Below, piece after piece: positions 120-56,375 of a stretch of DNA of 56,967 nt. Origin of the DNA: a virus; IMG/VR virus record IMGVR_UViG_3300042524_000351, positions 1 through 56,967 of that record; one strand, written 5' to 3'. Position 1 is the stretch's first letter. Each line of letters begins with the position of its first letter. Below the pieces are notes generated by a model, which had not been told where the DNA came from, made no database searches, and was given only the letters and a program-made list of their open reading frames with translations. Position numbers and translations under genes: made by a program.

Positions 120-126
120 CTTTCCT
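69..126 (+). repeat. attL core, 58-bp direct repeat of attR
   Basis: Positions 69-126 are identical to 56842-56899, and the match breaks at 68/56841 and at 127/56900. The repeat begins at the last base of the 5' anticodon-stem strand and runs seven bases past the tRNA 3' end. That is the usual footprint of a tyrosine recombinase that crosses over in an anticodon loop. Confidence 0.93.
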
Positions 127-33216: not shown

Positions 33217-34149
33217 TTACACTTTTTTCACGTCGGAAGTCGCCTCGTTTGGGAAGAAAATCCGAGGTGACCAGCCAAGACTTTTCCTTACGGCCACAGG
33301 GGATGCGCGGGTTTCCGGCACGTCCGCTGGGTGGGCATCTTTGTGGATCACGGTAGGTGTAAAATCAGTAAAGCTGGACCCCGAAATCTGTAAAGCGGCG
33401 GCGGCTTTCGTCGCGGCATCCAGCATGTCCATGACGGAGTGGTTTTTGCCAGTGCCGACGTTCAGAACGGCCGATCCGGGACCGGGCCAGTGGAGAGCAA
33501 GTTCGACCGCCCTGGCCACATCGGAAACGTGCGTGAGGTCGCGGCGGTGGCTCCCATCACCATTGATTACGACTGGCTGGCTCGCCTCGATCTTGCGACG
33601 GAACGCTTCCAGTGCGAGGTCTGGGCGCTGACCTGAACCCCAGACGGAGAAGAACCGCAGGGCGAGAAAGCGCAGACCGTGGAGGCGGGAGTAGAGTCGG
33701 CCCCATTGCTCGCCGTGGAGTTTGGTCAGTGCGTATGGGCTGCATGGATCAGGCGTGGTCGATTCCTCGGCCGGCAGTGGCGTGTCCGGTCCATAGACGC
33801 TGGACGACGAAGCGAAGACGAAATGGCGGATGCCGTGGATTCGGCAATGCTCCAGGAGCCGCAGGGTGCCGACCACGTTCGTTGAGTCATAATCGAAAGG
33901 CCGGTCCATAGAGGGGCGCACACCGGCCAGAGCTGCGAGATGAACAATGGCGTCGATTCCTTGGTCTGGCAGGCGGGCGGTCCTAATGTCGCCGCAGAGG
34001 TAGATGCTGCCGTCCGGAAATCTGTCCTCGGGCGGGATCAAGTCGTAGCCGATGACTTTGTGGCCTGCATCGCATAGGTGCCGCACGACATGGTTGCCGA
34101 TGAAGCCGGACGACCCGGTGACGAGGACGGTGAGCGGTTTGAAATCCAT
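33217..34149 (-). CDS. NAD-dependent sugar-nucleotide epimerase/dehydratase
   Basis: A 310-residue extended SDR protein. The NAD loop GSSGFIG lies near the start, DIR follows, SSSSVYG carries the catalytic Ser, and YALTK supplies Tyr and Lys. TTPDPCSPYAL and LRFFSVWGSGQRPD match GalE/uronate-epimerase type enzymes. It would reshape an NDP-sugar. In this phage the likely user is the putative DNA glycosyltransferase (23115), though capsule or LPS change is also possible. GTTGAC (34164-34169) lies exactly 20 nt upstream and contains the TGA of the upstream gene. Confidence 0.8.
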   Translation of the reverse strand: MDFKPLTVLVTGSSGFIGNHVVRHLCDAGHKVIGYDLIPPEDRFPDGSIYLCGDIRTARLPDQGIDAIVHLAALAGVRPSMDRPFDYDSTNVVGTLRLLEHCRIHGIRHFVFASSSSVYGPDTPLPAEESTTPDPCSPYALTKLHGEQWGRLYSRLHGLRFLALRFFSVWGSGQRPDLALEAFRRKIEASQPVVINGDGSHRRDLTHVSDVARAVELALHWPGPGSAVLNVGTGKNHSVMDMLDAATKAAAALQISGSSFTDFTPTVIHKDAHPADVPETRASPVAVRKSLGWSPRIFFPNEATSDVKKV

Positions 34150-35796: not shown

Positions 35797-36304
35797 GATA
35801 CCGCTTGCGGGCTGTCAACGAGCGCATGGCGCGGGAGGGTTTGAGGTCGAGCAGTTCGGTTAGTTCGACACAGCGTTTGCTGACCGCCGCTCTGGTGATG
35901 CCGTGGCGTTCGGCGATTTCAGTCATCGAGGAACCGGTGTAGGAAAGGCCGCTGACCAGGGCGATGCACTCGGCGGTGAGGCGGGCGTTGTCGTGGCAGA
36001 GGATTTCACCCAGCACACGCCGTAGTGATGACCACACTGATTCTGTGTCGCAGGTTTCGTCATCGGATTCCGGTTCTGGTTCGGGCATCACGGCGGGATC
36101 GTCGCCCTCCTTCATCAATGGACTGTCGGCGGCATCACCCTTGGCTGATCCGTTGCCGTGGTTGGCGAGGCATGGCGCGGCAAGACCTTGGGCTTCGAGT
36201 TTGCGGCGTTCATCCGCAGGCAGGGATTCAATCCACGCCCGGTATTCGCGCTGATACTCGGCATCGCGGGCGGATTGCTTTTTGGAGTAGTCGTCGGAGT
36301 TCAT
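35753..36304 (-). CDS. Sigma-70 region-4-like regulator
   Basis: A 183-residue protein with an acidic low-complexity middle (GDDPAVMPEPEPESDDETCD) and a C-terminal HTH (SSMTEIAERHGITRAAVSKRCVELTELLDL). This is the region-4 style of sigma-like phage regulators that bind promoter DNA. The C-terminus is very basic. It overlaps the polymerase stop by ATGA (36301-36304), and an N-terminal extension is not needed. It may switch on late or replication transcription. Confidence 0.6.
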   Translation of the reverse strand: MNSDDYSKKQSARDAEYQREYRAWIESLPADERRKLEAQGLAAPCLANHGNGSAKGDAADSPLMKEGDDPAVMPEPEPESDDETCDTESVWSSLRRVLGEILCHDNARLTAECIALVSGLSYTGSSMTEIAERHGITRAAVSKRCVELTELLDLKPSRAMRSLTARKRYRAARIRSTRSHELT

Positions 36305-39300
36305 TTTTCGGCCCAGGTGGTGCAGATGTTTGCTTCGACTTCGACCGGCACCTCTGGGAAGAGGGCGGCCATGGCTTCGACCATCGCGGTCGTGATGATT
36401 TCCCGGCACTCGTTGGCGGATTCCTCGCGGCACTCGACGACGACTTCGTCATGCACGGTGGAGACGAGGCGGGCTGACTTCGGAAGGCGCTCGTGGATCA
36501 GAATGAGGGCGTGTTTCATGCCGTCGGCGGTGCCGCCCTGGACTGGAGTGTTCACGAGCGCGGTGAAGCGTTCCCACTCGCTGGCTTTTTCCGGGACGAG
36601 ACGGCGACGGCCGGTGCGGGTGCGAACTTCGGTGACGCCCGCCTCTGCTTGGTTGTGGCTGGTGCCGTGCCATTGGCGGAGACGTGAGTAGGTGCGGAAG
36701 AATGCCTGGCGGATGTCGGTCGCCTGATCCTCGTCGAGGGTGACGCCGTAGGAGCTGGCGGCGTATTTCACCAGACCTGGGGCCGACTGACCGTAGAGCA
36801 GGCCGAAGTTCACTGCCTTCGCCAACTGCCGGTCGGACTTCGTCACCTGATCCTCGGGTTTGCCAAGCACGGTGGCGGCGGTGAGTTTGTGGAGGTCCGC
36901 GCCCGACTTGTAGGCGTCGATCATCTTGGTTTCGCCCGCGATGGCTGCCGCCGCACGCAATTCGATCTGCGAGTAGTCGGCAACGATGAGGCGTTTGCCG
37001 TTCGGTGCGGTGAACGCTTCACGCATTTCACCCCGTCCGATGTTCTGGAGGTTCGGTTCCTTGGATGAGAAGCGACCGGTGGCGGTGCCGAGTGGTTCAA
37101 AGCGTCCGTGGATGCGTCCGTCTTTCTGGATGTGACCGACCAGCGATTCGGCTTGCTGGGCGCGTTTGCTCGCTTCGCGGTAGGCCAGCACCAGGGGAAC
37201 CAGGAGGCCGTCGTCAGCCGCTTTGAGAACTTCCTCGGCGGTGGATTCCAGTTTGAGACCCTTGGCGCGGAGGGCCGCGAGAATTTGGCTCGGGCTGGCC
37301 GGATTGATTCCTGGATTTTCCAGGGCAACTCGAAGATCGTCGGCAGCCTTTTGAGCAAGTCGGTCGGCTTCGGCGGCGATGGATTCCAGTTTGGATTTAT
37401 CGGTGTGGATGCCTGTCGCCTCCATGCTGACTACGCAGGGCAGGAGATTGCTTTCGAGCGCCCAAACGGTATCGAGTCCTGAAAATTCCAACTCGCTTTC
37501 CATGGTGCCGAGCAAGTCGTGGAGGTGAGCCACGTCGCGGGCCGCATAGGCGAGTTGGTCATCGGTGAGCAGCATCGACGCCCAATCGGAACGGCTGTGG
37601 TCGGCGGCTGGTTGGATACCGAGGTATCGCTCCAGGCATTTGTCGAGGTCGTTGCCGGGTTTGGTGCCGGCACTCAGGATGCGGGCTGCGGTGAGCGTGC
37701 AATGGACGCGCTTGGCGAACAGCCCGCACTTCACACGCAGCCAGAGCAGATCGAACTTTGCATTGTGGGCGATGATGCCGGTTTCCTCCAAGATTGGCCT
37801 GAGCGGTCCGAGATCGTATCCGACGGCGCGGAGGTCGATGGTCCAGATCGGGCCACCGTGGCGGCAGACGGTGAGCAGGCGGATCTCACCCTTCCACGGG
37901 TCGAGGCCATCGCCTTTGCGCTCGCCGTAGGTTTCGATGTCCAGAGCGATGCGGGATGCACAGGTCAGGTCGAGGGCGACGCGGTCGAGGTCGGTGCGGA
38001 TGGAGCAGAAAACCTGTTTGAGGGACGTAGGGACATTGGGGGAGTTTTTCCTATCCCCCTTATAGAGACCTTTTAATTCATCATGATTTTTATTTTTTTC
38101 ATCGTCATTTTTTTCTCCCATATAAGGCGTATGGAAATGTCCCTCAATGTCCCTACGTCCCTCAGTGGATGTGGCAGGTTTGGGCGTTGAGAGGCAAATG
38201 GGCAGTTCTCCATCACCTTCGCGGAAGAAACGGTAGATGCCGAAATTCTTGGATGTCTGCTTGAGACGGAAGGTGATGCCCCCGAGTTCACGCTTATCAA
38301 ACTTCGCGACGATCTTGCCGAAGCTGGTCAGTCCTCGCCGCGCGGCGAAATCAAGCCAGTCAAACAGCTCGTGGACCTCCTCGCTCTGCTGGATGAAAGC
38401 CTGAAATTCCTTCTTCAGCACCTCGCGGTCGCCGAAGTGGTCGAAAGCCAACACGAAGAAATCCCGCATCGCCTTGGTCGCTTGGTCACCGGACGATTGG
38501 CTGTCTTCATGTGGGCGGCACGGGTCCGGCAACCCGGCACAGTGGAGGATACCACCGACTGTCTGCCCCCATTCCGGGAACGAGGTGAATGGTGACGGAC
38601 CGGGCGGACATCCTTGCCGCACCCATTCATTGACCAGAGCGGCGACGGCCGAGAGCAATTCCGAACGGTGGCGACGAACCCAGCCTTTGATGTCGATGTG
38701 ACGATAGCGGTGGCCGTTGATGTCGTCTGGCGAGAAGCGCAGGCGGATGCGTCGGCAGCGGCGTTCGATGTCGGGTTCCCACGTCGCATTGTTGGCGGAG
38801 AATGAAAACTCGGTTTCGTTGGGGAGCGTCATGGTTTCACTCACACCGAGGCGGCGGTCCTCCCACACGCCCGAGTTGTCAGTGGCGGCTTCGAGCGAGG
38901 CATAGCGGACGTGCCCCTTCATGTTTGCCAGATGGAAGAAGCGACTGCCGGCCATGAGCGCGGAGGTGATGCGTTTGCGCATCTCGTCGTCGCATTCCTT
39001 GGAGAGCGGGGCGCAGACGATCGAACGCCCGGTGTAAGCAATGTGGGTGAGGTCGGCGCAGGTGTCCTTGCCGCAGCCTTCGCGGTTGCCGTCGTAGATC
39101 CAAAGCGGGGTGCGCATCCATCCCATCAGGCCCCGACAGAACGGGGTGATGAAGCGTGCCAGCGCGTGGATGCGCGATTGTTCGTCGTGCCACCAGAACC
39201 CGCCATGCTCGGGCAGGCCGAAGAGATCCTGGAGCAACCAGCGCAGTGCCTCGCTGTGGCCCATCGTCTTGAGCTGTGGGGCGTGCGGATTGAGCCAGGT

Positions 39301-40710
39301 GCCGAAGCGTTCGTCGTATCCTGGTTTCGGATAGACCAGCTTGCCATCGTCGGATAAGTGCGGCACCGGAACGTCGAGCACGCGGTGGATTCGCGGCAGG
39401 CACGAGCTGAAAAACCCGCTGACAAGTGTGATGCGGGCGTCCTGCTCGCTCATGCTTTTCGGGACGAAAACATGGTCGCCAGCATCGTCTTCCCTGGTGA
39501 CACCGGTTTCGACGGTGCGCTCGATGGCGGTGACCAGTTCCGCGGCCTTGATGGTCGAGAGCATGTGGCCGGGGATCGACCCCGCCTTGTCGGCGGCCGG
39601 AACGGTGGTGATTTCCACCACGTTGTTTGAGAAGCGGAACAGATCGAGAGCTGGGGCGAGGTATTGGCCGAGTTCCTTGCCGAACTCACCTTGGGCGCGA
39701 CCGAGTGCCGGGAGAATGATGCGTGGCCTGCCCGAGGCGTTGGTGTTGCCTGGGGACCAGACCCGGAGATTTGAACAACGGGCGGCGATGATCCCTGGTT
39801 TCTGAGCCTCCGCCCATTCGACCAGATCCCGGATGCCGTGTGATTCGCAATGCGAGTGCAGGCACTTGAACCCCGGCATGGTTTCCGGTTGGTTGAAAAT
39901 GATCGTGTCAGATCCGGGAGCGTCGGACACGCCTCCGGTGTGATCGGATTCCCACGGGCAGCGCACCGACCACTTGTTGTGATCCGGATCGAGGCAGGTG
40001 CCCAAACGGCCAAGGTCTTCCATCACCCCGGCGAGATCGAGTGTGCGGAGGTCTTCATTCCATCGCGCCCACCATGGTTTTTCCTTCGACGGGCGACCGC
40101 GTTTCTTGGCTTCCGGTGCCGAGAATCCAAACCAGCGGCAGAGGTTGTTCCAACTCACTTCCGGGATGTCGCCGGTGACTTCCCAGGAATATGTGTGGCC
40201 GCTTTTGTGGACCGATGGCGAGAGAACGAGATTGAGTCCGTCCAGATAGAGTTCGGCGGTGACGGCATCATTGATCTGGCAGGTGGGTGCCTTCTTCGAC
40301 TTCATCACTTCCTCGGGGATGTCGCGGCAGATGAATGCCAAGTGCGCTCCGCCGCCAGTGCGTTCACGGGGGACGGCGACAAGATCCGGTTGGGTGGCGA
40401 GCCATGCCATCACCGAGGCACCTGCATCCGGCTTACTGTCGAGATCAACATGGACGAATGGCGCACGCACCACGCAACCGATATTGTGGCTGGATCCGTT
40501 GGCGAAATACTTGGTTAGGAAATCTGGGCTGATCTCGGATGCCATGTGGTTGCGCCAGCCTTTGAGGATCGGTTTCTTGCCGCGCTCATGGTGGTCGCCA
40601 CGGTCGGGAGGCAGTAGGGGATGGATCGCCCAGCCGAGAGTGGTGGCGTAGAACTGCGCGGCGGCAAGTCGGTCGAGGGAGTTGATGTCGGGTGGAATTG
40701 AGGGCTTCAT
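36301..40710 (-). CDS. Primase-helicase-exonuclease-DNA polymerase I fusion
   Basis: A 1469-residue replication protein with four activities in one chain. (1) AEP/PrimPol, 1-190: VHVDLDS (D89, D91), GGGAHLAF (H123), LSPSVHKSGHTYSW. (2) A zinc/CHC2-like patch around C251, H257, C283, H285-C288. (3) AAA+ (SF3-like) helicase: Walker A GNREGCGKDT (541-550), FHLANMKG, sensor FSFSANN, RRCRRIRLRF. (4) 3'-5' exonuclease: DIE at 924-926, IAHNAKFD, YAARDVAH; then family A polymerase with VADYSQIELR (D1245), KAVNFGLLYG and VSTVHDEVVV (H1420, D1421). A Lys/Asn-rich AT-rich linker (866-890) joins the helicase and exonuclease halves. The whole would start and extend DNA without a host primase. Confidence 0.85.
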   Translation of the reverse strand: MKPSIPPDINSLDRLAAAQFYATTLGWAIHPLLPPDRGDHHERGKKPILKGWRNHMASEISPDFLTKYFANGSSHNIGCVVRAPFVHVDLDSKPDAGASVMAWLATQPDLVAVPRERTGGGAHLAFICRDIPEEVMKSKKAPTCQINDAVTAELYLDGLNLVLSPSVHKSGHTYSWEVTGDIPEVSWNNLCRWFGFSAPEAKKRGRPSKEKPWWARWNEDLRTLDLAGVMEDLGRLGTCLDPDHNKWSVRCPWESDHTGGVSDAPGSDTIIFNQPETMPGFKCLHSHCESHGIRDLVEWAEAQKPGIIAARCSNLRVWSPGNTNASGRPRIILPALGRAQGEFGKELGQYLAPALDLFRFSNNVVEITTVPAADKAGSIPGHMLSTIKAAELVTAIERTVETGVTREDDAGDHVFVPKSMSEQDARITLVSGFFSSCLPRIHRVLDVPVPHLSDDGKLVYPKPGYDERFGTWLNPHAPQLKTMGHSEALRWLLQDLFGLPEHGGFWWHDEQSRIHALARFITPFCRGLMGWMRTPLWIYDGNREGCGKDTCADLTHIAYTGRSIVCAPLSKECDDEMRKRITSALMAGSRFFHLANMKGHVRYASLEAATDNSGVWEDRRLGVSETMTLPNETEFSFSANNATWEPDIERRCRRIRLRFSPDDINGHRYRHIDIKGWVRRHRSELLSAVAALVNEWVRQGCPPGPSPFTSFPEWGQTVGGILHCAGLPDPCRPHEDSQSSGDQATKAMRDFFVLAFDHFGDREVLKKEFQAFIQQSEEVHELFDWLDFAARRGLTSFGKIVAKFDKRELGGITFRLKQTSKNFGIYRFFREGDGELPICLSTPKPATSTEGRRDIEGHFHTPYMGEKNDDEKNKNHDELKGLYKGDRKNSPNVPTSLKQVFCSIRTDLDRVALDLTCASRIALDIETYGERKGDGLDPWKGEIRLLTVCRHGGPIWTIDLRAVGYDLGPLRPILEETGIIAHNAKFDLLWLRVKCGLFAKRVHCTLTAARILSAGTKPGNDLDKCLERYLGIQPAADHSRSDWASMLLTDDQLAYAARDVAHLHDLLGTMESELEFSGLDTVWALESNLLPCVVSMEATGIHTDKSKLESIAAEADRLAQKAADDLRVALENPGINPASPSQILAALRAKGLKLESTAEEVLKAADDGLLVPLVLAYREASKRAQQAESLVGHIQKDGRIHGRFEPLGTATGRFSSKEPNLQNIGRGEMREAFTAPNGKRLIVADYSQIELRAAAAIAGETKMIDAYKSGADLHKLTAATVLGKPEDQVTKSDRQLAKAVNFGLLYGQSAPGLVKYAASSYGVTLDEDQATDIRQAFFRTYSRLRQWHGTSHNQAEAGVTEVRTRTGRRRLVPEKASEWERFTALVNTPVQGGTADGMKHALILIHERLPKSARLVSTVHDEVVVECREESANECREIITTAMVEAMAALFPEVPVEVEANICTTWAEK
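38092..38115 (-). other. Two slippery heptamers in the fusion linker
   Basis: On the minus strand, GAA AAA AAT at 38115-38107 and again at 38100-38092 place A_AAA_AAT in frame twice. A -1 slip at the first meets TGA and at the second meets TAA at once, so either would release a primase-helicase of about 868-873 residues. This imitates E. coli dnaX, where frameshifting makes a shorter product. It may also be chance in an AT-rich linker. Confidence 0.35.
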
Positions 40711-41960
40711 GGGTGTGAGTGGGGAAAGTGGAAATCGAGTGCTCGCTGGGAGACAAAGACGCCACGCGGCCAGTCCTTGAGGTGGAGTCCGGCGAGCGTG
40801 CGGACACGGGAAAGGGCGACGTATGCCTGGCCCGGTTCACGGGCGGCACGGATGTCGATGAAGGCGGAGTCGAGCGTGAGACCTTGCGCTTTGTGGATGG
40901 TTAGGGCGTTGGCCAGCCGTAGCGGCATTTGCTCGAACCAGGCGGAACCCGGATCGTTGGAGTCGTAGCGCCAGCGGTAGGGCGACACTTCCAGCTCGCG
41001 GCCTTCGGTGAAGACGACGGCGGAGGTGATGCCGATGGATACCACTTCACCGGTCTGACCATTGACGAAGCCGTCGTCGGGGCGATTGACGGTGAACATG
41101 ACCTTGGCACCCGGCTTGAGTCGCAGGACTTTTGGCGTGAGCAGGTTCTTTTCGAGGAAGTCGATTTGGTGCTGTGGTCCCCAAGTTTCCGCCTCGCGGA
41201 CGGATTCAGGGCCGGGAAGTTCGCCGAGACAGTAGTCGTTCCAGCGATCCACCATCGAGTTGTGTGTGAAGAGTCTAGTGATGTCCCTGGCAGGGAACGT
41301 GGTGATGCGTGGACGCAGCAGACGTTCGGTGTCGCCGTCGATCTCACCGCGTCGAAACTTGGCAAGAGCCGCCACGAAATCCGGTTCGTCCTGCCGCATG
41401 ATCCGTCGCAGTTCGACGGTCTGGAATTTCGCTGCCGACCATGCCGATGAATCAAAGGCCCAGTCATAGGATTGCGTCGGGTTGATTCTAACGGGTGGCA
41501 GTTGCAGAAAGTCACCGGTGCCGATCACCTGAATGCCACCGAAGGGGCGTTTGTCCTCACGGATTTTACGGCAATGAAAATCGAGATAGTCGAACGCACT
41601 GCCTGAGAGCATCGAGATTTCATCAATCACGAGCCGCTTGCAGCGACGCACCCTGTTGAAGGCAGCACGCACGCTCGGTTTCGGATCGCGGGCTAGTTGT
41701 TCAAAGAATCGCTCGAAACTCTGCCCTTTGGCGGGACCGAGAAGCATTCCGGCCCAACGGTGAACGGTCATGCCGCCGACGTTGAGGGCTGCCACTCCGG
41801 TTGATGCCACGACGTGCGTGTCCGGGTGACGTTTCAGGTAGTCCCGGACGTTGTGGCTTTTCCCGGACCCTGCTGGGCCAGTGAGAAACGTGTTCTCACC
41901 AGCCGTGGCAAGGTCGAGGAATCGGTCGGATGGACTCCGTGCAACCAGGCTTCCGCTCAT
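40707..41960 (-). CDS. Pif1/RecD2-like SF1 helicase
   Basis: A 417-residue helicase. FLTGPAGSGKS (motif I), VVASTGVAALNVGG, MTVHRWAGM, RLVIDEISMLSG (motif II), QVIGTGDFLQLPPV (motif III), VMFTVNRPDDGFVNGQTG, LTIHKAQGLTL (motif V) and YVALSRVRTLAGL (motif VI) appear in order. This is the Pif1 layout; it unwinds forks, R-loops or recombination intermediates. The start is the ATG at 41960, which overlaps the stop of the small membrane protein (ATGA). Its stop overlaps the polymerase start. Confidence 0.88.
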   Translation of the reverse strand: MSGSLVARSPSDRFLDLATAGENTFLTGPAGSGKSHNVRDYLKRHPDTHVVASTGVAALNVGGMTVHRWAGMLLGPAKGQSFERFFEQLARDPKPSVRAAFNRVRRCKRLVIDEISMLSGSAFDYLDFHCRKIREDKRPFGGIQVIGTGDFLQLPPVRINPTQSYDWAFDSSAWSAAKFQTVELRRIMRQDEPDFVAALAKFRRGEIDGDTERLLRPRITTFPARDITRLFTHNSMVDRWNDYCLGELPGPESVREAETWGPQHQIDFLEKNLLTPKVLRLKPGAKVMFTVNRPDDGFVNGQTGEVVSIGITSAVVFTEGRELEVSPYRWRYDSNDPGSAWFEQMPLRLANALTIHKAQGLTLDSAFIDIRAAREPGQAYVALSRVRTLAGLHLKDWPRGVFVSQRALDFHFPHSHP

Positions 41961-42124
41961 GGCAGCCACGCGCCTCCGCCGCGAATCACCCAGCCTGCAA
42001 GTAGGCCGAGGAGGAATGACAGGACGATCATCGGCCAGCGGCGACGACGGCGGTTTTGACGCACGACAAATCCCTGGATAGGGAAGCGTCGATACGCAGA
42101 CTGCGGATAGATGGGAGTGGTCAT
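41957..42124 (-). CDS. Small single-pass membrane protein (55 residues)
   Basis: A short gene, beginning MTTPIYPQSAYRRFPIQGF, with a run of five Arg just before a hydrophobic helix (MIVLSFLLGLLAGWVI) and a Gly-rich C-terminus ending AWLP. The positive-inside rule suggests the N-terminus is cytoplasmic. The near-palindrome O4 (42091-42109) lies in its first codons. TGA overlaps the helicase ATG. Unknown role; perhaps a membrane anchor for replication. Confidence 0.6.
   Translation of the reverse strand: MTTPIYPQSAYRRFPIQGFVVRQNRRRRRWPMIVLSFLLGLLAGWVIRGGGAWLP
42091..42109. promoter_or_regulatory. Candidate operator O4
   Basis: GATACGCAG-A-CTGCGGATA, a 19-bp near-palindrome sharing its arms with 27668-27686, 22436-22454 and 22204-22222. 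It is inside the first codons of the small membrane protein, where a repressor could block the replication operon that begins near 44.5 kb or an internal promoter. Confidence 0.4.
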
Positions 42125-42150
42125 GGTTGTGGATCTTAATTTTGATTTTG

Positions 42151-43017
42151 TTAGGCCGGGACCAACGCGGTCGGCGGTGTTTCATCGCCTGCATCCGGTG
42201 AGTCCTTCACCGGGCAGTAATTTTTCTGCCAGACCCACAAGTCGCGGGCGGCGAGGAAGGCGCGGAAGAATCCGGGTTTGTCGGCATCGTCCCAAACCTG
42301 CGTGACGACCGGCACCGGTTCGGTGGAACCGATGACAACCGAGGCGATGGCGGCGTCCAGCAATCCCTTGTCGCGGGAAGCGAGCGCCTGATGGTAGGCT
42401 TCAAGTTGCAGCGGCCAAGTATCGTGGAGGATCGGCTTGAACGATCCATTCTTGTCACGCCGGGTTTTTTGCGTTTTGAAGTCGATGACGGTCGGACGCC
42501 CGGTGGATTTGAGCGTCGCCACCAGATCCACCCGTCCGGCGTATCCCCATTCGAGGTGACCGGTGGCGATTTCAACCGAGTGTACCTGTGTGACCTCCGC
42601 ATCGAACCACTGGCGAGCCGGTTCAAAGAGGCGGGCAACCTCCTTGTCCTCGGGCAACCAGCGACCTTGCGCATAACCTTCGATGGCGGCGTGAACCGCG
42701 CTGCCAAGATCAGCAGCACGACCAACTTCGCTGTGCATGTCAGTGATGACACGCTTGGCGAAGTCGTCGAGGGATTCGCCTTCGGTGCGCGGCAGGGTGA
42801 GTGCCGCGAGGATGGCCTGTTCCTGTTTCCATGCGTCCAACCCCGGCTTGGCGAGGATGGACAGCACGTTGGTCACGGATGGGAACAGGCCGAGTTTTCT
42901 AGCGTCACGCAGACTGGTTGGGCGTGAGCCCTTCCCGTCGGCACGCGGCACCTCATGAAGGGGCGTGCCGTCCGGGAAATACCAGTGCGATGCGGACTCT
43001 CGTGGAACGATGAGCAT
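42151..43017 (-). CDS. PD-(D/E)XK nuclease (RecB/Cas4-type)
   Basis: A 288-residue protein with a RecB-type nuclease core: RAADLGSAVHAAIEGY (His of motif I), GYAGRVDLVATL (D), TVIDFKTQK (DxK), and WPLQLEAYHQAL (QhxxY motif). The N-terminus (HWYFPDGTPLHEVP) is unrecognised. It could process DNA ends for recombination or packaging. The ATG at 43017 was chosen because upstream codons overlap the SSB gene in a non-protein-like stretch. Confidence 0.75.
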   Translation of the reverse strand: MLIVPRESASHWYFPDGTPLHEVPRADGKGSRPTSLRDARKLGLFPSVTNVLSILAKPGLDAWKQEQAILAALTLPRTEGESLDDFAKRVITDMHSEVGRAADLGSAVHAAIEGYAQGRWLPEDKEVARLFEPARQWFDAEVTQVHSVEIATGHLEWGYAGRVDLVATLKSTGRPTVIDFKTQKTRRDKNGSFKPILHDTWPLQLEAYHQALASRDKGLLDAAIASVVIGSTEPVPVVTQVWDDADKPGFFRAFLAARDLWVWQKNYCPVKDSPDAGDETPPTALVPA

Positions 43018-43036: not shown

Positions 43037-43750
43037 TTAGAACGGGATGTTGTCCTCTTCATCGTCCTGAGACGAGAGAGCCTGCTTGGCCTGCTGGATG
43101 GCAGCGATGAGTTCGCGGTCGGCCTTGAGCGGCTTTTCCATTTCAAGTGCGGTTGGCAGCCACTTGGTGAGCAGTGCCTCCACTGATTCGCGGTCGAGTT
43201 CGCCAAGGTCGATTCCGGTGTGGCGGCCAACGTGGACTTTCACGCGACGCCAATCGGACGAAGCCTCGCCGCTGTTGGATGCTGGACGGAACTTCTCGTC
43301 GTTGCTCTGGCGGTCCTTCTGGCGAACATACTTACCAGACGGCTTGAGCGGTTCGCCGGATTTGTCGGCGCGGATCAGGCCGATGTTTGCATAGACCGTG
43401 CCGTTGTAGTCGTTGTGAACTACGGACACACGGGCTGGACGACCAATGAGTGATTCGGTGTCGAACTCGTTCTGTTCGGCGGCTGTCAGATCGCGACCGA
43501 ACCACTGTTTTAAGAAAGCTCGGAGAGCGGCCTTCTCATGCAGACTCGGTGTGAAGCTGCGGGAGAATAGCAAGTATGGGCTGCCGTTCTGACGGATTTC
43601 AGTGGTCTCATAAACGAAGCGAAATGTCTCGCGCTCGCCATAGGCTGATTGGGTTTTCTTGAGTGGAGTCACGTCAACGCAGACAGCTTGGCCGTCATAC
43701 TCGGGGTGTGCCTCGAATGGTGAATTAGATCCAGATGCGGATAGTTTCAT
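43037..43750 (-). CDS. Phage single-stranded DNA-binding-like protein
   Basis: A 237-residue protein ending SSQDDEEDNIPF, the acidic tip that single-strand DNA-binding proteins use to recruit partners. The N-terminal part (GQAVCVDVTPLKKTQSAYGERETFRFVYET) is strand-rich, as an OB-fold would be, and YANIGLIRADKS appears later. I assign an SSB/DUF669-like role in replication with the fusion polymerase. The start ATG at 43750 begins the conserved part. It sits 19 nt upstream of the nuclease gene start. Confidence 0.65.
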   Translation of the reverse strand: MKLSASGSNSPFEAHPEYDGQAVCVDVTPLKKTQSAYGERETFRFVYETTEIRQNGSPYLLFSRSFTPSLHEKAALRAFLKQWFGRDLTAAEQNEFDTESLIGRPARVSVVHNDYNGTVYANIGLIRADKSGEPLKPSGKYVRQKDRQSNDEKFRPASNSGEASSDWRRVKVHVGRHTGIDLGELDRESVEALLTKWLPTALEMEKPLKADRELIAAIQQAKQALSSQDDEEDNIPF

Positions 43751-47775: not shown

Positions 47776-49284
47776 ATGACCGACCAACAAATTAAAGACG
47801 AGATCTTCAACGTCGTCTGGAGCGCTTGCGACACCTTTCGGGGTGTCATCGACCCCAGCGACTACAAAAACTACATCCTCACCCTCCTGTTCGTGAAATA
47901 CCTCAGCGACGCCCGCAAGGGGAAGCTGGAGGAGTTCGAGAAGAAGTATAACGGCGACAAGACACGCATTGAGCGGGCTATGTCCCGCGAACGCTTTGTC
48001 ATCCCCGAGGAATGCACCTTTGATCACCTTTACGCCCACCGCGAGGACACCGACATCGGCCAGGTCGTCAACACGGTCTTGGAAGCGATTGAAGACGCCA
48101 ACAAGGCGAAGCTGCACAACGTGTTCCGCAACATCGACTTCAACAGTGAGGCGAACCTTGGTAAGACCCGCCAGCGCAACCAACGACTCAAGCAGCTCCT
48201 GGAGGACTTCAATAGCAAGAAACTCGACCTACGTCCGTCAAGGGTCGGCCATATGGACATCGTGGGCGACGTTTATGAGTACCTGATTGGCCGATTCGCT
48301 GCGCAGGCGGGCAAAAAGGCCGGGGAGTTCTACACCCCTGCCGAGGTCTCAGAGACCCTTGCTCGCTTGGTCAAGCCGCAGGATGGTGACCGCATTTGTG
48401 ACCCGACCTGCGGATCTGGCTCACTACTCATCAAGGCATCCCAGCGTGTAGGATCGAAGAACTTCTCGCTCTACGGCCAAGAGATGAACGGGAGCACGTG
48501 GGCGCTCTGTAAAATGAACATGTTCCTCCACGAAGTCGATGCTGCCCGCATCGAGTGGGAAGACACAATCAGACACCCGCAACTCGTCGAAAATGATGCT
48601 CTGATGAAGTTCGACATCGTGGTCGCCAACCCGCCGTTCAGCCTAGACAAGTGGGGACAGGAGATCGCCGCGTCGGATCAGTTCGACCGCTTCCACCGAG
48701 GCATTCCGCCAAAGAGCAAGGGGGACTGGGCCTTCATCAGCCACATGATTGCTACCGCAGTTGAAAGCAAGGGTCGCGTCGGCGTAGTCGTACCCCATGG
48801 TGTCTTGTTCCGTGGGGGGCAAGAAGGCGTTATCCGCAAGTCCTTGATTGAGGAGAACGTGCTGGCTGGTGTGATTGGTCTGCCCGCAAATCTGTTCTAC
48901 GGGGCCGGCATCCCAGCCGCCCTAGTCATCTTTGACAAGAGCCGTAAACCAAAAAGGAAAGATCCTGTGTTCTTCATTGATGCCTCCGCTGAATATGAGC
49001 AGGGCACGAACCAAAATCGCCTACGCCGTCAGGATATGGATAAGATCGTCGAGACCTTCCACTCGAATAAGGAGATCGAAAAATACTCCAAGCTGGCAAG
49101 CTTCGCAGAGATAGAGGAAAACGACTTCAATCTCAATATCCCGCGATATGTCGACACGTTCGAACCTGAGCCGGAAATCGAGATGGTTGATGTGCAGAAG
49201 GACATCACCCGCCTGAATGCAGAGTTGGCCGAAGTAGAGGCTCAGATGAACACTTACCTGGAGGAACTCGGTTTCAAGTCATGA
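47776..49284 (+). CDS. hsdM: Type I restriction-modification methyltransferase subunit
   Basis: A 502-residue N6-adenine methyltransferase. It has the HsdM N-terminal helices (YILTLLFVKYLSDARKGKLEEF), GEFYTPAEVSETLARL, the SAM loop DPTCGSGSLLI, and the catalytic NPPF in VVANPPFSLDKW. It modifies host DNA at the site set by HsdS. ATGA overlaps with hsdS (49281-49284). Confidence 0.92.
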   Translation: MTDQQIKDEIFNVVWSACDTFRGVIDPSDYKNYILTLLFVKYLSDARKGKLEEFEKKYNGDKTRIERAMSRERFVIPEECTFDHLYAHREDTDIGQVVNTVLEAIEDANKAKLHNVFRNIDFNSEANLGKTRQRNQRLKQLLEDFNSKKLDLRPSRVGHMDIVGDVYEYLIGRFAAQAGKKAGEFYTPAEVSETLARLVKPQDGDRICDPTCGSGSLLIKASQRVGSKNFSLYGQEMNGSTWALCKMNMFLHEVDAARIEWEDTIRHPQLVENDALMKFDIVVANPPFSLDKWGQEIAASDQFDRFHRGIPPKSKGDWAFISHMIATAVESKGRVGVVVPHGVLFRGGQEGVIRKSLIEENVLAGVIGLPANLFYGAGIPAALVIFDKSRKPKRKDPVFFIDASAEYEQGTNQNRLRRQDMDKIVETFHSNKEIEKYSKLASFAEIEENDFNLNIPRYVDTFEPEPEIEMVDVQKDITRLNAELAEVEAQMNTYLEELGFKS

Positions 49285-50555
49285 TTACCACGAATGCAAA
49301 TCGTAATGGCTTTAAGCATAGCAAGGTTGGGTGGATTCCAAAAGATTGGAAAACGCAAGCCATATCAAGCGTTGCAGACATCCGCTTTAGTGGGGTTGAC
49401 AAAAACACGATAGAAGGCGAAACGCCAGTCAGACTTTGCAACTACACTGACGTCTATTATAGGGATACGGTAGGTCCTGACGTGGACTTCATGAGCGCTT
49501 CCGCAACAGCCACTGAGATTTCCCGCTTTGAGCTACGAGAAAACGATGTGTTGGTGACAAAGGACTCAGAGTCAGCCGATGACATAGCAGTTCCTTGTTT
49601 TGTTAAAGCTGATGCCCCTGGAGTTTTATGTGGCTATCACCTGGCCCTTATTCGTCCCGACGCCAATGTGCTATGTGGTCGCTATCTCAGCTATGCCCTT
49701 AAGACCGATCATGCTCGCAATGATTTTAGAAGATTTGCTAACGGTGTGACAAGATTTGGTTTGACGTCGGATACCTTCGAGAAGGTTCTGATTCCGGTCC
49801 CTCCTTTGGAGGAGCAGCATGAAATTGCTAAGATAATTTCTAAATGCGATGATTTAATAGATGTGCATGGTGATCTGATCACAGCTAAGAAACGACAAAA
49901 ACGAGCTCTTCAGCAGCAATTACTAACAGGAAAAAAGCGCTTACCTCGCTTCAAGGCAGTATGGCGAGAAGTATGTCTCAACGATCTCTGCACTCGATTG
50001 ACTACTGTGGCCGAGGACCCTAATGGATACCCAGTACTCAGCATAACCGCTGGGACCGGCTTTGTCTCTCAAGAGGACAAGTTTAGTCGCGTCATCGCCG
50101 GTAAGCAGGTAGAGAATTATGTCCTCTTGAGGCGTGGTGAGTTCGCTTACAACAAGGGAAACTCATACCGCTTCCCGCAAGGATGTGTGTATCAGCTTAG
50201 TGAATACGATGAGGGTCTAGTCCCTAATGTGTTTTATTCCTTCAAGCTTAATGAGCGAAAGGCTGACCAAGAATTTATCAAACAGTATTTTCTATCAGGT
50301 ATGCACAACAAAAACCTTTACCGTTGGATCAACTCTGGTGTTCGGAACAACGGATTGTTAAATTTGAATGCATCTGACTTCTTTAAACTGCCAATCGACC
50401 TGCCCCCACTTGATGAACAACATGCGATTGGAGATGTTCTGCGAACGGCCGATGAAGAGATCAAGTCTCTGAATGATAAGCTGGTTGCTCTTAAAGATCG
50501 AAAAAGCGGGCTCATGCAGAAACTGCTAACCGGTCAAGTCCGCATAAAAATATAA
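49281..50555 (+). CDS. hsdS: Type I restriction-modification specificity subunit
   Basis: A 424-residue two-TRD protein. The two target-recognition domains are separated by a conserved helix: VPPLEEQHEIAKIISKCDDLID (about 170-190) and the second PPLDEQHAIGDVLRTADEEI (about 370-390), followed by LTGKKRL and LTGQVRI. This duplicated P-L-E/D-EQH helix signature is diagnostic. The gene is AT-richer than hsdM and hsdR, as usual for fast-changing specificity genes. It overlaps hsdM. Confidence 0.92.
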   Translation: MITTNANRNGFKHSKVGWIPKDWKTQAISSVADIRFSGVDKNTIEGETPVRLCNYTDVYYRDTVGPDVDFMSASATATEISRFELRENDVLVTKDSESADDIAVPCFVKADAPGVLCGYHLALIRPDANVLCGRYLSYALKTDHARNDFRRFANGVTRFGLTSDTFEKVLIPVPPLEEQHEIAKIISKCDDLIDVHGDLITAKKRQKRALQQQLLTGKKRLPRFKAVWREVCLNDLCTRLTTVAEDPNGYPVLSITAGTGFVSQEDKFSRVIAGKQVENYVLLRRGEFAYNKGNSYRFPQGCVYQLSEYDEGLVPNVFYSFKLNERKADQEFIKQYFLSGMHNKNLYRWINSGVRNNGLLNLNASDFFKLPIDLPPLDEQHAIGDVLRTADEEIKSLNDKLVALKDRKSGLMQKLLTGQVRIKI

Positions 50556-50568
50556 ACCAAACGAGGAA

Positions 50569-53500
50569 ATGGAAGACGAAGAGCATTACCAAACTCCAAG
50601 CTATCTCGAAGCCGTGCAGAGCCAACTTCCGGCATTGCAACTGTTGATCGGGATGGGCTGGGCATACCTGCCGCCTGAAGAGTGCGTTCGTTTGCGAACT
50701 GGCCGTCTTGGCACCTCTATCATGGACTCGGTCTTGATCGACTTCATTCGTCGGCATGGTCGTTATACTTTCAAGGGCAAGGAGCACGTCTTCACTGAAA
50801 ATGCGATTGCCAACGCCGTTCAGTCACTCAAGTCCTTCCGTGCCACTGGGGCGATTCACCAAAACGAGGAGGTCTATGACCTGCTCTGCCTGGGGACCAG
50901 TGTTCCGCAGACCGTGGAGGGGGACACCAAGAGCTTCTCCATCGGCTACATCGATTGGAAGAATCCTGAAAACAATACCTACCATTGCACGGCCGAGTTC
51001 AAGGTTGAGCGCGTAGGCCTCCAGAAGCACTTTATCCCGGACATCGTTCTTTTCATCAATGGAATTCCCGTGGTGGTAATCGAGTGCAAGCGCAGCGCCT
51101 ACACAGATCTTAAGAAGCAGCCGGTGGATCTCGCTGTGGAACAGTTGATCGGGTACCAGGAGAAGGATGGGATTCCGCAGGTGTTTCTGTATTCCCAGCT
51201 TCTCCTCGCCCTTGCCCGCGACAAGGCCGAATACGGCACCACTGCCACTCCACGCAAGTTTTGGACCGTATGGCGCGAGGATGGATTGGATGACGCGATC
51301 CGGCAACTGATCAACCGTCCGATTGCGGATAACTCTCCACTGCTGACCGGCCCCTTCGAGCAATCAGCGCAAGGCTTCATCAAACTGCATGCTGCGGGCC
51401 GAGAGATCTATGAGCAAGACCGAGCCCTTTATGCGCTCTGTCGCCCGGAGCGACTTCTGCGACTAATTTACCAGAACATCGTCTTCGACAATGGGATAAA
51501 GAAAATCGCTCGCTACCAGCAGTTCTTCGCTGTTGAGGACATACTCAAGCGGATTCGTGGGGGCAGGCCGGATGAGCCTCGCGCTGGTGGCGTCGTCTGG
51601 CATACACAGGGCAGCGGCAAGTCACTCACGATGGTGATGCTCGCCAAAGCGTTGATCCTAGCTCCCGACATTCTCACACCCAAAGTCATCCTAGTCACTG
51701 ACCGCATCGACCTCGACGACCAAATCTGTGGTACCTTCCGCGCCTGTGGTTTCGAGCCTGAGCAGGCCAGCACTGGGCAGGACCTGGTGAAGCACCTGAC
51801 GGATGACAAGGCACACGTCGTAACCACGCTAATCCACAAATTTGAAGCTGCCACCAAGGCCCGAAACCTCAAGGGAGCCAGCCGCGATACCTTTGTGTTG
51901 GTCGACGAAGGCCACCGGAGCAACTACTCTGAGCATCACGCCCGCATGAAACTCGCTCTCAAAGGGGCCTGCTTTATCGCCTTTACCGGCACACCACTGG
52001 CTACCAAGAAGGTGGTGAAGGTAAGCCAGGATGGGAAGAAGACGACGAAGACCATCAATCCGAAGAAGAGCACTTTTGATCAATTCGGTGCGCTGTTTAC
52101 TCCGCCTTATACGATTGCTCGTGCTGTTGAAGACAAAGCTGTCACCCCGTTGCTTTATGAAGCGCGCCACGTTCCACAGACAGTGGATCAAGGGCCAATC
52201 GATAGCTGGTTTGAAAAGCTGACTCTTGGCTTGAACGAGAAACAGAGGGCAGATCTTAAGCGGAAGTATTCTTCCGATAGGCAACTCAACAAGGCCGAGC
52301 AGAAGGTCCGCATGATCGCATGGGACGTATCTCTCCATTATGCCAGGACTTATCAAGGGACCGGGATGAAGGGACAGCTCGTCGCGCCCGACAAAGCCAC
52401 GGCCCTACTTTACAAAAGCTGTTTCGATGAGTTCGGTCAAGTTAGCACGGAAGTCCTGTTTTCGGGTCCAAACCAAGCCGAGGGCGAGAATAACAAAAAG
52501 GAGCCCTCGCTTGAAGAGAGGAAGTTCTGGCAATCGATGATGGATCGCTATGGCTCTGAGGACAAATACAACAAGCAGCTCATCAACGCGTTCAAAAAGG
52601 GCGAGGAACCTGAGATCATCATTGTGGTCGACAAGCTGCTGACCGGCTTCGACGCCCCCTGCAACACGGTCCTCTACTTGGCGCGTAAGCTGAAGGCGCA
52701 CACCTTGCTCCAGGCGATTGCTCGTGTGAATCGACTTTTTGAAGGCAAGCAGTATGGTCTGATTCTCGATTACAGTGGAGTGATCGAAGATCTGGACGAT
52801 GCCATCGACTTTTATACCAAGCTCGCCGACTACGACAAAGACGACCTCGCGGAAACCGTGCATTTTGTAATAGAGGAGGCTGCAAAATTGCCGCAGCTCC
52901 ACTCGGATGCATGGGAGCTATTCCCGGGTCTCAAAGGCACCACCGATCCGGAACCGTTTGCTCAGAGCCTTCGGGACGAGGCAAAGCGTAACCGCTTCTA
53001 TGAGCGCTTCGGTGCCTTCGCCCGCACCCTGGCACTGGCGCTGTCCTCAACCAGCTTCCTTGAAACGACAGCCGAAATGACGATTCAGCGCTACAAGGCT
53101 GACCTGAAGTTCTTCCAAAACCTCCGGGCTGAAGTAGCCCATCGATTCCAAGAGCGCATCGACTTCTCCGAATACGAACCAAAGATTCAGAAGCTGATCA
53201 ACACCCATGTCAGCGCCGACGAAGTGGTGCAGCTATGTGATCCGATCAACCTGTTTGATGCAACGGAGAGGCGGCAGGTTCTCGAAGATCAGGGTAAGAG
53301 CGCCGAGGCCAAAGCGGACATGATTGCTTCCGCAACGCAGCGCACGATCGACAAGGAAATGGAGAAGGATCCGGCTTTCTACACCAAGTTCTCCAAGATG
53401 ATCCAGGAAGTGCTGGCCGCGATCTACAGTGGACGTATGAGCGCTATCGAGGCCCTGCCTACTCTAGAGGATTACGCAAACAAGGTGGCCACCCGCACTG

Positions 53501-53814
53501 ATGATAGCCTTCCCGAGGAACTTGCAACCCGTGACATGGCACGCCGCTACTACGGCGTTGTTCGAGATGAGATCATGAAATACCACCCAAATCTCAAAGC
53601 CGCCGTTCGCATTGCGGTTGAAATACAGGATCGCTTGGCAGATCACAAGATCCGCGATTTCAGAGACAATCACGATGCCCTGAATCGGATGCGAAACGAA
53701 ATCGACGACGTGTTTTTTGATGTGTGCGAAGAGATGGGCATGGAGATCCCGCTCGAAGTTCAGGACAAGCTAATCGATCAATGTATTGAGCTCACAATCG
53801 CCAATGAAGACTAA
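50569..53814 (+). CDS. hsdR: Type I restriction endonuclease subunit
   Basis: A 1081-residue translocase-nuclease. The N-terminal PD-(D/E)XK region includes PDIVLFINGIPVVVIECKR with Q..Y following; motor motif I is HTQGSGKSLTM, motif Ia VTDRIDLDDQI, motif II VLVDEGHRS, motif III FTGTPL. The helical C-terminus contacts HsdM. It is 13 nt downstream of hsdS, so R, M and S form one operon. Length matches intact HsdR; no frameshift seen. Confidence 0.92.
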   Translation: MEDEEHYQTPSYLEAVQSQLPALQLLIGMGWAYLPPEECVRLRTGRLGTSIMDSVLIDFIRRHGRYTFKGKEHVFTENAIANAVQSLKSFRATGAIHQNEEVYDLLCLGTSVPQTVEGDTKSFSIGYIDWKNPENNTYHCTAEFKVERVGLQKHFIPDIVLFINGIPVVVIECKRSAYTDLKKQPVDLAVEQLIGYQEKDGIPQVFLYSQLLLALARDKAEYGTTATPRKFWTVWREDGLDDAIRQLINRPIADNSPLLTGPFEQSAQGFIKLHAAGREIYEQDRALYALCRPERLLRLIYQNIVFDNGIKKIARYQQFFAVEDILKRIRGGRPDEPRAGGVVWHTQGSGKSLTMVMLAKALILAPDILTPKVILVTDRIDLDDQICGTFRACGFEPEQASTGQDLVKHLTDDKAHVVTTLIHKFEAATKARNLKGASRDTFVLVDEGHRSNYSEHHARMKLALKGACFIAFTGTPLATKKVVKVSQDGKKTTKTINPKKSTFDQFGALFTPPYTIARAVEDKAVTPLLYEARHVPQTVDQGPIDSWFEKLTLGLNEKQRADLKRKYSSDRQLNKAEQKVRMIAWDVSLHYARTYQGTGMKGQLVAPDKATALLYKSCFDEFGQVSTEVLFSGPNQAEGENNKKEPSLEERKFWQSMMDRYGSEDKYNKQLINAFKKGEEPEIIIVVDKLLTGFDAPCNTVLYLARKLKAHTLLQAIARVNRLFEGKQYGLILDYSGVIEDLDDAIDFYTKLADYDKDDLAETVHFVIEEAAKLPQLHSDAWELFPGLKGTTDPEPFAQSLRDEAKRNRFYERFGAFARTLALALSSTSFLETTAEMTIQRYKADLKFFQNLRAEVAHRFQERIDFSEYEPKIQKLINTHVSADEVVQLCDPINLFDATERRQVLEDQGKSAEAKADMIASATQRTIDKEMEKDPAFYTKFSKMIQEVLAAIYSGRMSAIEALPTLEDYANKVATRTDDSLPEELATRDMARRYYGVVRDEIMKYHPNLKAAVRIAVEIQDRLADHKIRDFRDNHDALNRMRNEIDDVFFDVCEEMGMEIPLEVQDKLIDQCIELTIANED

Positions 53815-55425: not shown

Positions 55426-55460
55426 TGGTTTGTTCAGGCTCTATGCGGAACCGCTCGATC

Positions 55461-56375
55461 ATGCAAAAAAAGAAGAAATCCTCAGCACCCGGCCCGCAAT
55501 TTGTGCGCTTTTTTTGGCCACTTATCCGCTCCCTTCAAAAGTTAGGAGGGTCTGGCAATGCAAGCGAAGTCATTCAAATGATCGTGCAGGATGAAATGAT
55601 TCCTGAGGACGTCCAGCAGGAGAAGCTCAAGAGCGGCGGCTTGAGGGTGAACAATCAGATCTATTTTTGCAGACAGTATTTGGTCTGGGCTGGTTACGTG
55701 ACGTCATCGTCGCGTGGGGTCTGGACGCTTACCGAGTCCGGACAATCCCTCAAGGGTATGAGCCAGGAAGATGCGCTCAAGGTATTCAAGGAGCAGTCTG
55801 TTCTCAACAGAACAAAGGCCAATAAGAAGAAAGCAATCGATGGGGCACAAGAATCAGATGATATAGATGGCGAGGACGAGAGCGGCATTCCTGGGGGCAC
55901 CGAAGCGTATGACTACAAGAAGCAAGCGTTAGCCCGAGTTTACGGCCTGAGCCCGAAAGGCTTCGAGCACTTCTGCAAGCGCCTACTTCGGGAATCCGGC
56001 TTCGAACGGGTCGAGGTTACTGGTGGCCCGAAAGACAAGGGAATTGATGGTGAGGGGCTACTGAAACTAAATTCCTTCATGAGTTTCAGGGTTGTTTTTC
56101 AGTGCAAACGCTATGCGGAAGCCGTAACATCCAGCCATATTTCGACATTTCGTGGCAGTATTCCATCCAGCGCCGACAAAGGCATTCTTATCACCACAGG
56201 ATATTTCACCTCTGACGCCATTAAGATGGCGCAGGAAAAGGGACTCAAACCAATTGAACTGATCAACGGAGACCAGCTCGTCCGGCTCATGGAAGAACTC
56301 CAGCTAGGACTCCGTCCTACATATTTGGTGGATGATGAGTTTTTCGATGATTTTGCGGTGAATGGGATGGCCTGA
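55461..56375 (+). CDS. Mrr-type (type IV) restriction endonuclease
   Basis: A 304-residue protein. An N-terminal winged-helix Mrr_N-like part (FVRFFWPLIRSLQKLGGSGNASEVIQMIV... and VWTLTESGQSLKG), then a charged linker (DDIDGEDESGIPG), then the Mrr catalytic domain: YGLSPKGFEHFCKRLLRESGF, GPKDKGIDGEG (D), VVFQCKRY (QxK). Mrr enzymes cut modified DNA. Starts at 55443 or 55461 are both possible; 55461 begins MQKKKKSS. It sits between a broken and an intact HTH gene. Confidence 0.85.
   Translation: MQKKKKSSAPGPQFVRFFWPLIRSLQKLGGSGNASEVIQMIVQDEMIPEDVQQEKLKSGGLRVNNQIYFCRQYLVWAGYVTSSSRGVWTLTESGQSLKGMSQEDALKVFKEQSVLNRTKANKKKAIDGAQESDDIDGEDESGIPGGTEAYDYKKQALARVYGLSPKGFEHFCKRLLRESGFERVEVTGGPKDKGIDGEGLLKLNSFMSFRVVFQCKRYAEAVTSSHISTFRGSIPSSADKGILITTGYFTSDAIKMAQEKGLKPIELINGDQLVRLMEELQLGLRPTYLVDDEFFDDFAVNGMA

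What the first reader, a model, noticed from the sequence alone, without database searches (positions are those of the whole stretch)
36301..40710. Single-chain primase-helicase-exonuclease-polymerase of 1469 residues
PrimPol, zinc patch, AAA+ helicase, 3'-5' exonuclease and family A polymerase motifs are all present in one frame. PrimPol-helicase fusions are known from phages, but I do not know a common fusion that also includes a proofreading Pol I. It would be a one-protein replisome, possibly starting without RNA primer.
Basis: partly seen in the sequence, partly recalled or inferred. Interest (0 to 1): 0.75.

Follow-up and report, generated by a model that had tools for sequence, protein, structure and literature searches.

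The report
One-chain phage replicase containing its origin
A prophage of Verrucomicrobia-type bacteria encodes its primase, helicase, proofreader and DNA polymerase as one long protein, and the DNA coding for the middle of that protein very probably also serves as the phage's replication start site, so one 4.4-kb gene may carry most of a replication machine.

Summary
In detail: window 36301-40710 (-) is one open 1469-aa frame with Prim-Pol, Zn patch, AAA+ helicase, winged helix, 3'-5' exonuclease and family A polymerase. It is not an artefact: about 20 full-length fused loci (48-96% identity) occur in viral contigs and Verrucomicrobiota genomes. Two close relatives encode the PolA as a separate protein.

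The new point lies in the linker (38019-38164). Six iteron-like repeats (two inverted sets of three) flank an AT-rich ~90-bp core. 20 of 22 fused linkers hold a long inverted repeat (score 15 or more) against 6 elsewhere in 378 kb. The arms covary without G-U excess, so they look like DNA sites. The frame through them never has a stop. In unfused relatives the same structure sits at or just after the primase-helicase stop codon, where SaPI/PICI origins lie. Best reading: a PICI-type origin became the translated linker when PolA was joined on.

Single-chain replicases are known (GP55 with PolB; Pyrovirus DUF927-PolA; Prex), and lambda's origin lies inside O. This is a new variant: PrimPol+PolA with an in-frame origin. 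Primer chemistry, helicase activity (altered Walker motifs) and origin function are untested.

The parts
36301..40710 (-). Fused replicase gene, 1469 aa: PrimPol - Zn patch - AAA+ helicase - winged helix - origin-bearing linker - 3'-5' exonuclease - family A polymerase
40165..40659 (-). Prim-Pol (AEP) domain, residues 18-182; candidate catalytic D89/D91, H123, E153 invariant
   Evidence: Pfam PF09250 5e-14; AF2 model pLDDT 88.5 matches pRN1 ORF904 and NrS-1 N300
39811..40086 (-). Zn-patch region, residues 209-300, C251/H257/C283/H285/H287/C288
   Evidence: alignments
38506..39423 (-). AAA+ / D5-like helicase, residues 430-735; Walker A 541-550 (GNREGCGKDT), Walker B position A595-N596
   Evidence: AF2 model, fold matches, invariant motifs
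38215..38493 (-). Winged-helix domain, residues 740-832, candidate iteron-binding domain
   Evidence: secondary structure of AF2 model (helices then two strands); same position as the SaPI Rep/Cch2 C-terminal DNA-binding domain (PMC7581432); binding itself not tested
38019..38164 (.). Putative replication origin inside the coding linker: two inverted sets of three iteron-like repeats flanking an AT-rich core
38137..38162 (-). Iteron set 1 (three repeats, AGGGACGT, AGGGACAT, AGGGACAT) at 38155-38162, 38147-38154, 38137-38144
38021..38046 (+). Iteron set 2 (mirror orientation) at 38021-38028, 38029-38036, and a weaker innermost unit at 38039-38046
38047..38136 (.). AT-rich core between the iteron sets (loop about 31% G+C against ~60% for the surrounding gene), candidate unwinding element
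37486..37995 (-). 3'-5' proofreading exonuclease, residues 906-1075; D924/E926, D987, Y1055/D1059 invariant
   Evidence: Pfam PF01612 4e-18; invariant columns
36307..37386 (-). Family A DNA polymerase, residues 1109-1468; motif A D1245, motif B R1294/K1298/F1302, motif C H1420-D1421-E1422
   Evidence: Pfam PF00476 1e-78; profile matches Plasmodium Prex polymerase far better than Klenow
40707..42194 (-). PIF1-like helicase gene directly upstream (ATGA overlap)
42151..43017 (-). PD-(D/E)XK nuclease gene
43037..43750 (-). SSB-like protein with acidic C-terminal tail DDEEDNIPF (no Pfam hit; assigned by tail and context)

Best explanation
The gene encodes a single-chain initiator-primase-helicase-proofreading polymerase of a Verrucomicrobiota temperate phage. 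The segment coding for the linker between the initiator half and the polymerase half is the replication origin. Proposed mechanism (inferred): the winged-helix domain binds the two inverted iteron sets; two AAA+ rings assemble head-to-head and melt the AT-rich core; the PrimPol lays primers on the exposed strands; the tethered exo-PolA extends them with proofreading, helped by the phage's SSB-like protein and perhaps its PIF1-like helicase. The fusion probably arose when an unfused primase-helicase gene, with a SaPI/PICI-type origin at its 3' end, was joined in frame to a downstream PolA so that the origin became translated. Shown here: domain content, conservation of the fusion, conserved covarying iterons, open frame through them, and the same structure at the gene end of unfused relatives. 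Not shown: protein binding, melting, priming chemistry, origin activity.
For: Domains and catalytic residues conserved. Fused ORF in L004, L005, L006, L007, L009, L117 and in Verrucomicrobiota genome loci L090, L091, L093, L095, L096, L097, L100, L101, L102, L110, L168, L169. Linker inverted repeat scores 10-31 against shuffled maxima of 8-12; score 15 or more in 20 of 22 linkers against 6 elsewhere in 378 kb. Three repeats per arm, mostly at the same mirrored spacing 8,10|10,8. Covariation: 90.8% of cells paired (shuffles 77.4%), 16 pairs with two-sided changes, score 0.366 against at most 0.176 when slid. Non-Watson-Crick positions: 7 G-U, 11 A-C, 25 other, so no wobble preference, which points to DNA sites. 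Stops through the repeat region of 22 loci: 0, 48 and 97 in the three frames. In unfused relatives the repeat spans or follows the primase-helicase stop: L119, L120, L122, L123, L144, L145, L146, L147, L089. L097 is a mosaic: to the window protein about 57-80% over residues 1-360, 23-52% over helicase and winged helix, about 83% over exo-pol, with quite different iterons. [quoted passage not shown] SaPI Rep and Cch2 bind with the C-terminal domain (PMC7581432). Best fold hits of the helicase module include SaPI-type primase-helicases.
Against: No functional data. Fold matches are modest (TM about 0.35, E 9e-6). The linker signal is weak in L100 and L102, and no inverted repeat was found in L169. 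Among unfused relatives, L121 and L124 show none, and L118 has repeats upstream of the gene. Within the 11 closest members, arm divergence does not track winged-helix divergence better than polymerase divergence (Mantel). Walker A/B are non-canonical, so helicase activity is an inference. GC skew gives no clear turning point at the site. Related sequences are not independent counts.
Confidence: 0.72

Rival explanations
1. The inverted repeat is a regulatory mRNA hairpin (pause or attenuator) that tunes how much polymerase half is made or lets the first half fold before the second is translated.
For: Very strong predicted stem in all close relatives; located exactly at a domain boundary; covarying arms.
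Against: No excess of G-U over A-C mismatches (7 against 11). Each arm is itself built of three direct repeats, which an RNA stem does not need. The same structure lies at or after the stop codon of unfused genes. No U-run follows.
Confidence: 0.08
2. The iterons are bound by the protein, but as operator or copy-control sites (autoregulation) rather than as the replication origin.
For: Initiators often bind extra control iterons (own knowledge); binding sites inside or beside the initiator gene fit both roles.
Against: AT-rich core between symmetric sets matches PICI origins (PMC6092414); unique site in the window; it lies about 2.5 kb downstream of the gene start.
Confidence: 0.1
3. The chain is a polyprotein: it is cut in the linker (as reported for Plasmodium Prex), so primase-helicase and PolA act as separate enzymes and the fusion itself has no mechanistic role.
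For: Nearest solved polymerase relatives include Prex; Prex is described as proteolytically processed (PMC7689252); linker protein sequence is poorly conserved; the two halves recombine as modules and PolA stands alone in L010 and L011.
Against: No conserved cleavage motif seen in the linker; GP55-type replicases work as intact chains with coupled domains (PMC12205980).
Confidence: 0.15
4. The fusion is a prophage repair or lysogeny-maintenance enzyme and not the phage replicase.
For: Found in integrated prophages.
Against: Sits in a replication cluster with SSB-like, nuclease and PIF1-like genes and carries origin-like iterons.
Confidence: 0.04

Closest known systems
GP55 replicase of lactococcal phage 1706 (PMC12205980)
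   Same: One chain with helicase, archaeo-eukaryotic primase, polymerase and 3'-5' exonuclease; proposed self-contained replisome
   Different: Polymerase is family B, domain order is helicase-primase-PolB, alpha-helical aHD domain, 1317 aa; the passages read mention no embedded origin
Pyrovirus OS3173 PolA polyprotein (PMC7689252) and Plasmodium Prex
   Same: Exo-PolA C-terminus; our PolA profile matches Prex at about 1e-102; primase/helicase functions fused N-terminally; Pyrovirus also has fused and unfused versions
   Different: Pyrovirus N-terminus is DUF927; Prex primase-helicase is T7-gp4/Twinkle-like (own knowledge); no Prim-Pol domain reported in the passages read
Pas55 of Actinoplanes phage phiAsp2 (NC_005885, L083)
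   Same: Single 1415-aa chain with a homologous helicase (A4 profile 7e-38) and C-terminal PolA
   Different: N-terminus is DUF3854 (TOPRIM-like, own knowledge) instead of Prim-Pol; canonical Walker B DE; no inverted repeat found in its linker
SaPI / PICI replicon (Pri-Rep and ori; PMC6092414, PMC7581432)
   Same: Primase-helicase with C-terminal DNA-binding domain; origin = two iteron sets flanking an AT-rich region just 3' of the initiator module
   Different: Here the origin is inside an open frame, followed in frame by exo-PolA; the element is a capsid-encoding phage
Phage lambda O gene / ori-lambda (PMC7466680)
   Same: Iterons plus AT-rich tract lie inside the initiator's own coding sequence
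   Different: Lambda O has no enzymatic domains; iterons are on one side of the AT-rich tract (own knowledge)
NrS-1 and pRN1 ORF904 PrimPol-helicases
   Same: N-terminal PrimPol fold and C-terminal helicase
   Different: No family A polymerase or proofreading exonuclease

Membership tests
AEP superfamily, Prim-Pol (PF09250) | Pfam match above curated cut-off and catalytic acidic/His residues | tested here: met
   53.4 bits against cut-off 22.8; D89/D91, H123, E153 invariant
AEP superfamily, Prim-Pol (PF09250) | De novo primer synthesis | not testable with these tools
   needs biochemistry
Proofreading family A DNA polymerase | Exo motifs and polymerase motifs A, B, C intact | tested here: met
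SF3/AAA+ (D5-like) initiator helicase | AAA+ fold with Walker A GxxGxGK[S/T] and acidic Walker B | tested here: inconclusive
   fold matches yes; Walker A is GKD and the Walker B Asp is Ala in all members, while unfused relatives L119-L123 with GK[S/G] keep Asp-Asn
SaPI/PICI-type origin | Two iteron sets flanking an AT-rich region | tested here: met
SaPI/PICI-type origin | Located immediately 3' of the initiator coding region | tested here: met
   right after the winged helix, but inside the open frame; at or after the stop in unfused relatives
SaPI/PICI-type origin | Bound by the initiator C-terminal domain and supports replication | not testable with these tools
   needs binding and replication assays
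SaPI/PICI element | Satellite without a full set of its own head genes (own knowledge of the definition) | tested here: not met
   window encodes terminase large subunit, portal, head protease and tape measure
GP55-type four-in-one replicase | Helicase - PriS-like/aHD - family B polymerase | tested here: not met
   polymerase is family A, order differs
Pyrovirus 3173 PolA polyprotein | DUF927 helicase domain N-terminal to exo-PolA | tested here: not met
   no DUF927 match in Pfam scan

The most novel reading that the evidence does not exclude
A self-contained one-gene replicon: a single reading frame encodes the initiator, primase, helicase, proofreader and replicative polymerase and at the same time holds their origin in its linker, so that the ~4.4-kb gene (perhaps with SSB) is sufficient to replicate a DNA circle; the helicase-winged-helix-origin cassette can be exchanged inside the gene to change replication specificity.
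Probability: 0.4. Interest if true: 0.86.

Novelty: new variant of a known kind. Interest (0 to 1): 0.74.

Why it matters
It would be a very compact DNA replication module: enzyme set and origin in one gene. It gives a direct evolutionary route for making a single-chain replicase (an origin read through into a downstream polymerase). It offers a natural series of fused, unfused and mosaic relatives for testing how initiators and iterons co-evolve. [quoted passage not shown] A primer-independent, self-unwinding, proofreading polymerase would also be useful as a tool enzyme.

Tried and rejected
Assembly or frameshift artefact: rejected, the single frame recurs in about 20 loci; only L106 (a break in the helicase half) and L094 (a stop in the polymerase) are broken, neither at the junction. 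mRNA terminator: rejected, no T-run at the stem and no terminator call at the site. Intron or intein in the linker: rejected, too short and open in frame throughout. RNA hairpin: disfavoured by the mismatch test. Mantel test for co-evolution of iterons with the winged helix: no discrimination in 11 close members. GC skew for origin placement: uninformative. PDB sequence search with PrimPol and helicase profiles: nothing useful, so fold search was used. Isolate phages and plasmids: no record covers 80% or more of the protein (the phage search stopped at the 5000 best records). Cyanobacterial plasmids carry a related PolA directly behind a DnaB-type helicase gene, unfused. A paper on replication genes of dsDNA viruses (PMC4889955) is not held.

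Full report
1. The observation. Window 36301-40710 on the minus strand is one ATG-started frame of 1469 aa. Pfam finds Prim-Pol (18-182), DNA_pol_A_exo1 (906-1075) and DNA_pol_A (1109-1468). The helicase is not in Pfam, but PHROG matches and an AlphaFold model of residues 430-840 (pLDDT 77, pTM 0.79) place it with primase-helicases: PriRep1 with dsDNA, SaPI5 primase-helicase, NrS-1 C-terminal region, AsfvPrimPol and MPXV E5 (E 9e-6 at best, TM about 0.35). The PrimPol model (pLDDT 88.5) matches pRN1 ORF904 and NrS-1 N300. The polymerase profile matches Plasmodium Prex at about 1e-102 and Klenow at about 1e-62, so it belongs near the Prex/viral PolA branch.

2. It is a real, conserved fusion. 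The same single frame occurs in IMG/VR contigs L004, L005, L009, L006, L007 (96-65% identity) and L117, and in loci from Verrucomicrobiota genomes: L090, L091, L093, L095, L096, L097, L100, L101, L102, L110 and L168, L169. One partial locus (L107) is labelled Planctomycetota. Some genomes carry two copies. In a sample of 388 genomes of that phylum, fused versions appear in four (G001, G043, G061, and partly G124). No phage isolate or plasmid record covers 80% of it. Other PolA relatives in viral contigs are separate proteins of at most 1012 aa. Two close ones, L010 and L011 (64-65% identical), are stand-alone PolAs beside an AAA_25 ATPase gene, and in the polymerase tree they sit inside the fused group in two places. 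So the halves are exchangeable modules, and fusion is usual but not obligatory.

3. The linker holds an origin-like structure. A 146-bp inverted repeat (38019-38164) lies between the winged helix and the exonuclease. It is the only inverted repeat of score 14 or more in the window. Each arm is made of three direct repeats of about 8 bp, in most relatives at identical mirrored spacing 8,10 | 10,8, around a core of about 31% G+C in a gene of about 60%. All but the weakest fused linkers show it: 20 of 22 at score 15 or more, against six elsewhere in 378 kb, five of which are one palindrome cluster in L093/L110. The repeat sequence differs between genomes (GGGACATT, GGGATGTT, GGGACTTT, GTGAGGTG, TTTGCCTAC, GGAAACAAC) but is shared by the repeats of one genome.

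4. It is conserved as DNA and is open for translation. On a gap-free alignment of 15 sequences, 16 of 29 pairs show two-sided changes, 90.8% of cells pair against 77.4% in shuffles and 37-52% when slid; covariation score 0.366 against at most 0.176. Departures from Watson-Crick pairing are 7 G-U, 11 A-C and 25 other: an RNA stem should favour G-U, paired protein-binding sites need not. Through the repeat region of 22 loci, stop codons number 0 in the coding frame and 48 and 97 in the other two. The segment therefore appears to be coding and non-coding at once.

5. Unfused relatives explain it. Primase-helicases with a homologous helicase but no polymerase carry the same structure at their 3' end: spanning or touching the last codons in L119, L120, L122, L123, and after the stop in L144 (70 bp), L146 (64 bp), L147, L145 (about 450 bp) and in the more distant L089. 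L121 and L124 show none; L118 has repeats upstream. This is where SaPI/PICI origins lie: immediately 3' to the initiator gene, always two iteron sets flanking an AT-rich region (PMC6092414), bound by the C-terminal domain of the Rep helicase (PMC7581432). The simplest history is that such an origin became translated when the frame was joined to a downstream PolA. Inside-the-gene origins have a precedent in lambda O (PMC7466680).

6. A natural swap. L097 resembles the window protein over PrimPol and Zn patch (mostly 70-80%), differs over helicase, winged helix and linker (12-52%), and resembles it again over exo-pol (about 83%). Its iterons are entirely different. Helicase, winged helix and iterons thus appear to have moved as one block, as expected if the winged helix reads the iterons. 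A distance-correlation test among 11 close members did not single out the winged helix, so this remains supportive, not proof.

7. A caution about the motor. All family members have GK-D in Walker A and lack the Walker B Asp (Ala-Asn), whereas the more distant unfused relatives L119-L123 have GK-S/G with Asp-Asn. L118 and L164, also unfused, have GK-D with loss of that Asp. The two changes occur together, which suggests compensation (Asp moved from one Mg-ligand position to another), but loss of activity cannot be excluded.

8. Genome context. Upstream in the same direction lie genes for an SSB-like protein with an acidic tail, a PD-(D/E)XK nuclease and a PIF1-like helicase. The window appears to be a complete provirus: an integrase gene stands beside tRNA-Leu, and the tRNA 3' end is repeated at 56842. 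Terminase, portal, head protease and tape measure are present.

9. Verdict. The finding is real and more interesting than stated. As a multi-activity replicase it is a new variant of a known kind, since GP55 (PolB) and Pyrovirus (DUF927-PolA) exist. Activities, primer type, processing and origin function remain to be shown.

Noticed in passing
window 38-120 and 56842 onward: The 3' part of tRNA-Leu is repeated (40 bp or more) at the right end: attL/attR of an apparently complete provirus with an integrase gene at 93-1514.
   Followed up: partly
window 47776-53814 and 55443-56375: Type I restriction-modification genes hsdM, hsdS, hsdR and an Mrr-type nuclease lie inside the att sites, apparently as cargo of the prophage.
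   Followed up: no
window 33217-34149 (-): NAD-dependent epimerase gene close to the replication module; similar ORFs follow the replicase in several viral relatives.
   Followed up: no
L011:2830-5298: A DEAD/ResIII-type helicase ORF appears to be interrupted at its Walker A by an intein-like insert (CHAPGSPIL...HHNSGKT) absent from the L010 homologue.
   Followed up: no
L093:764-1246 and L110:764-894: Cluster of palindromes TTGATTCCAAWTTGGAATCAA just upstream of the replicase gene, perhaps operators.
   Followed up: no
L118:4652-4979: Two iteron-like inverted repeats (GTGGTAGGGTTRG) upstream of, not after, an unfused helicase gene.
   Followed up: no
L171 and L172: Cyanobacterial plasmids carry a related exo-PolA directly behind a DnaB-type helicase gene, a Prex-like pair without fusion.
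   Followed up: partly
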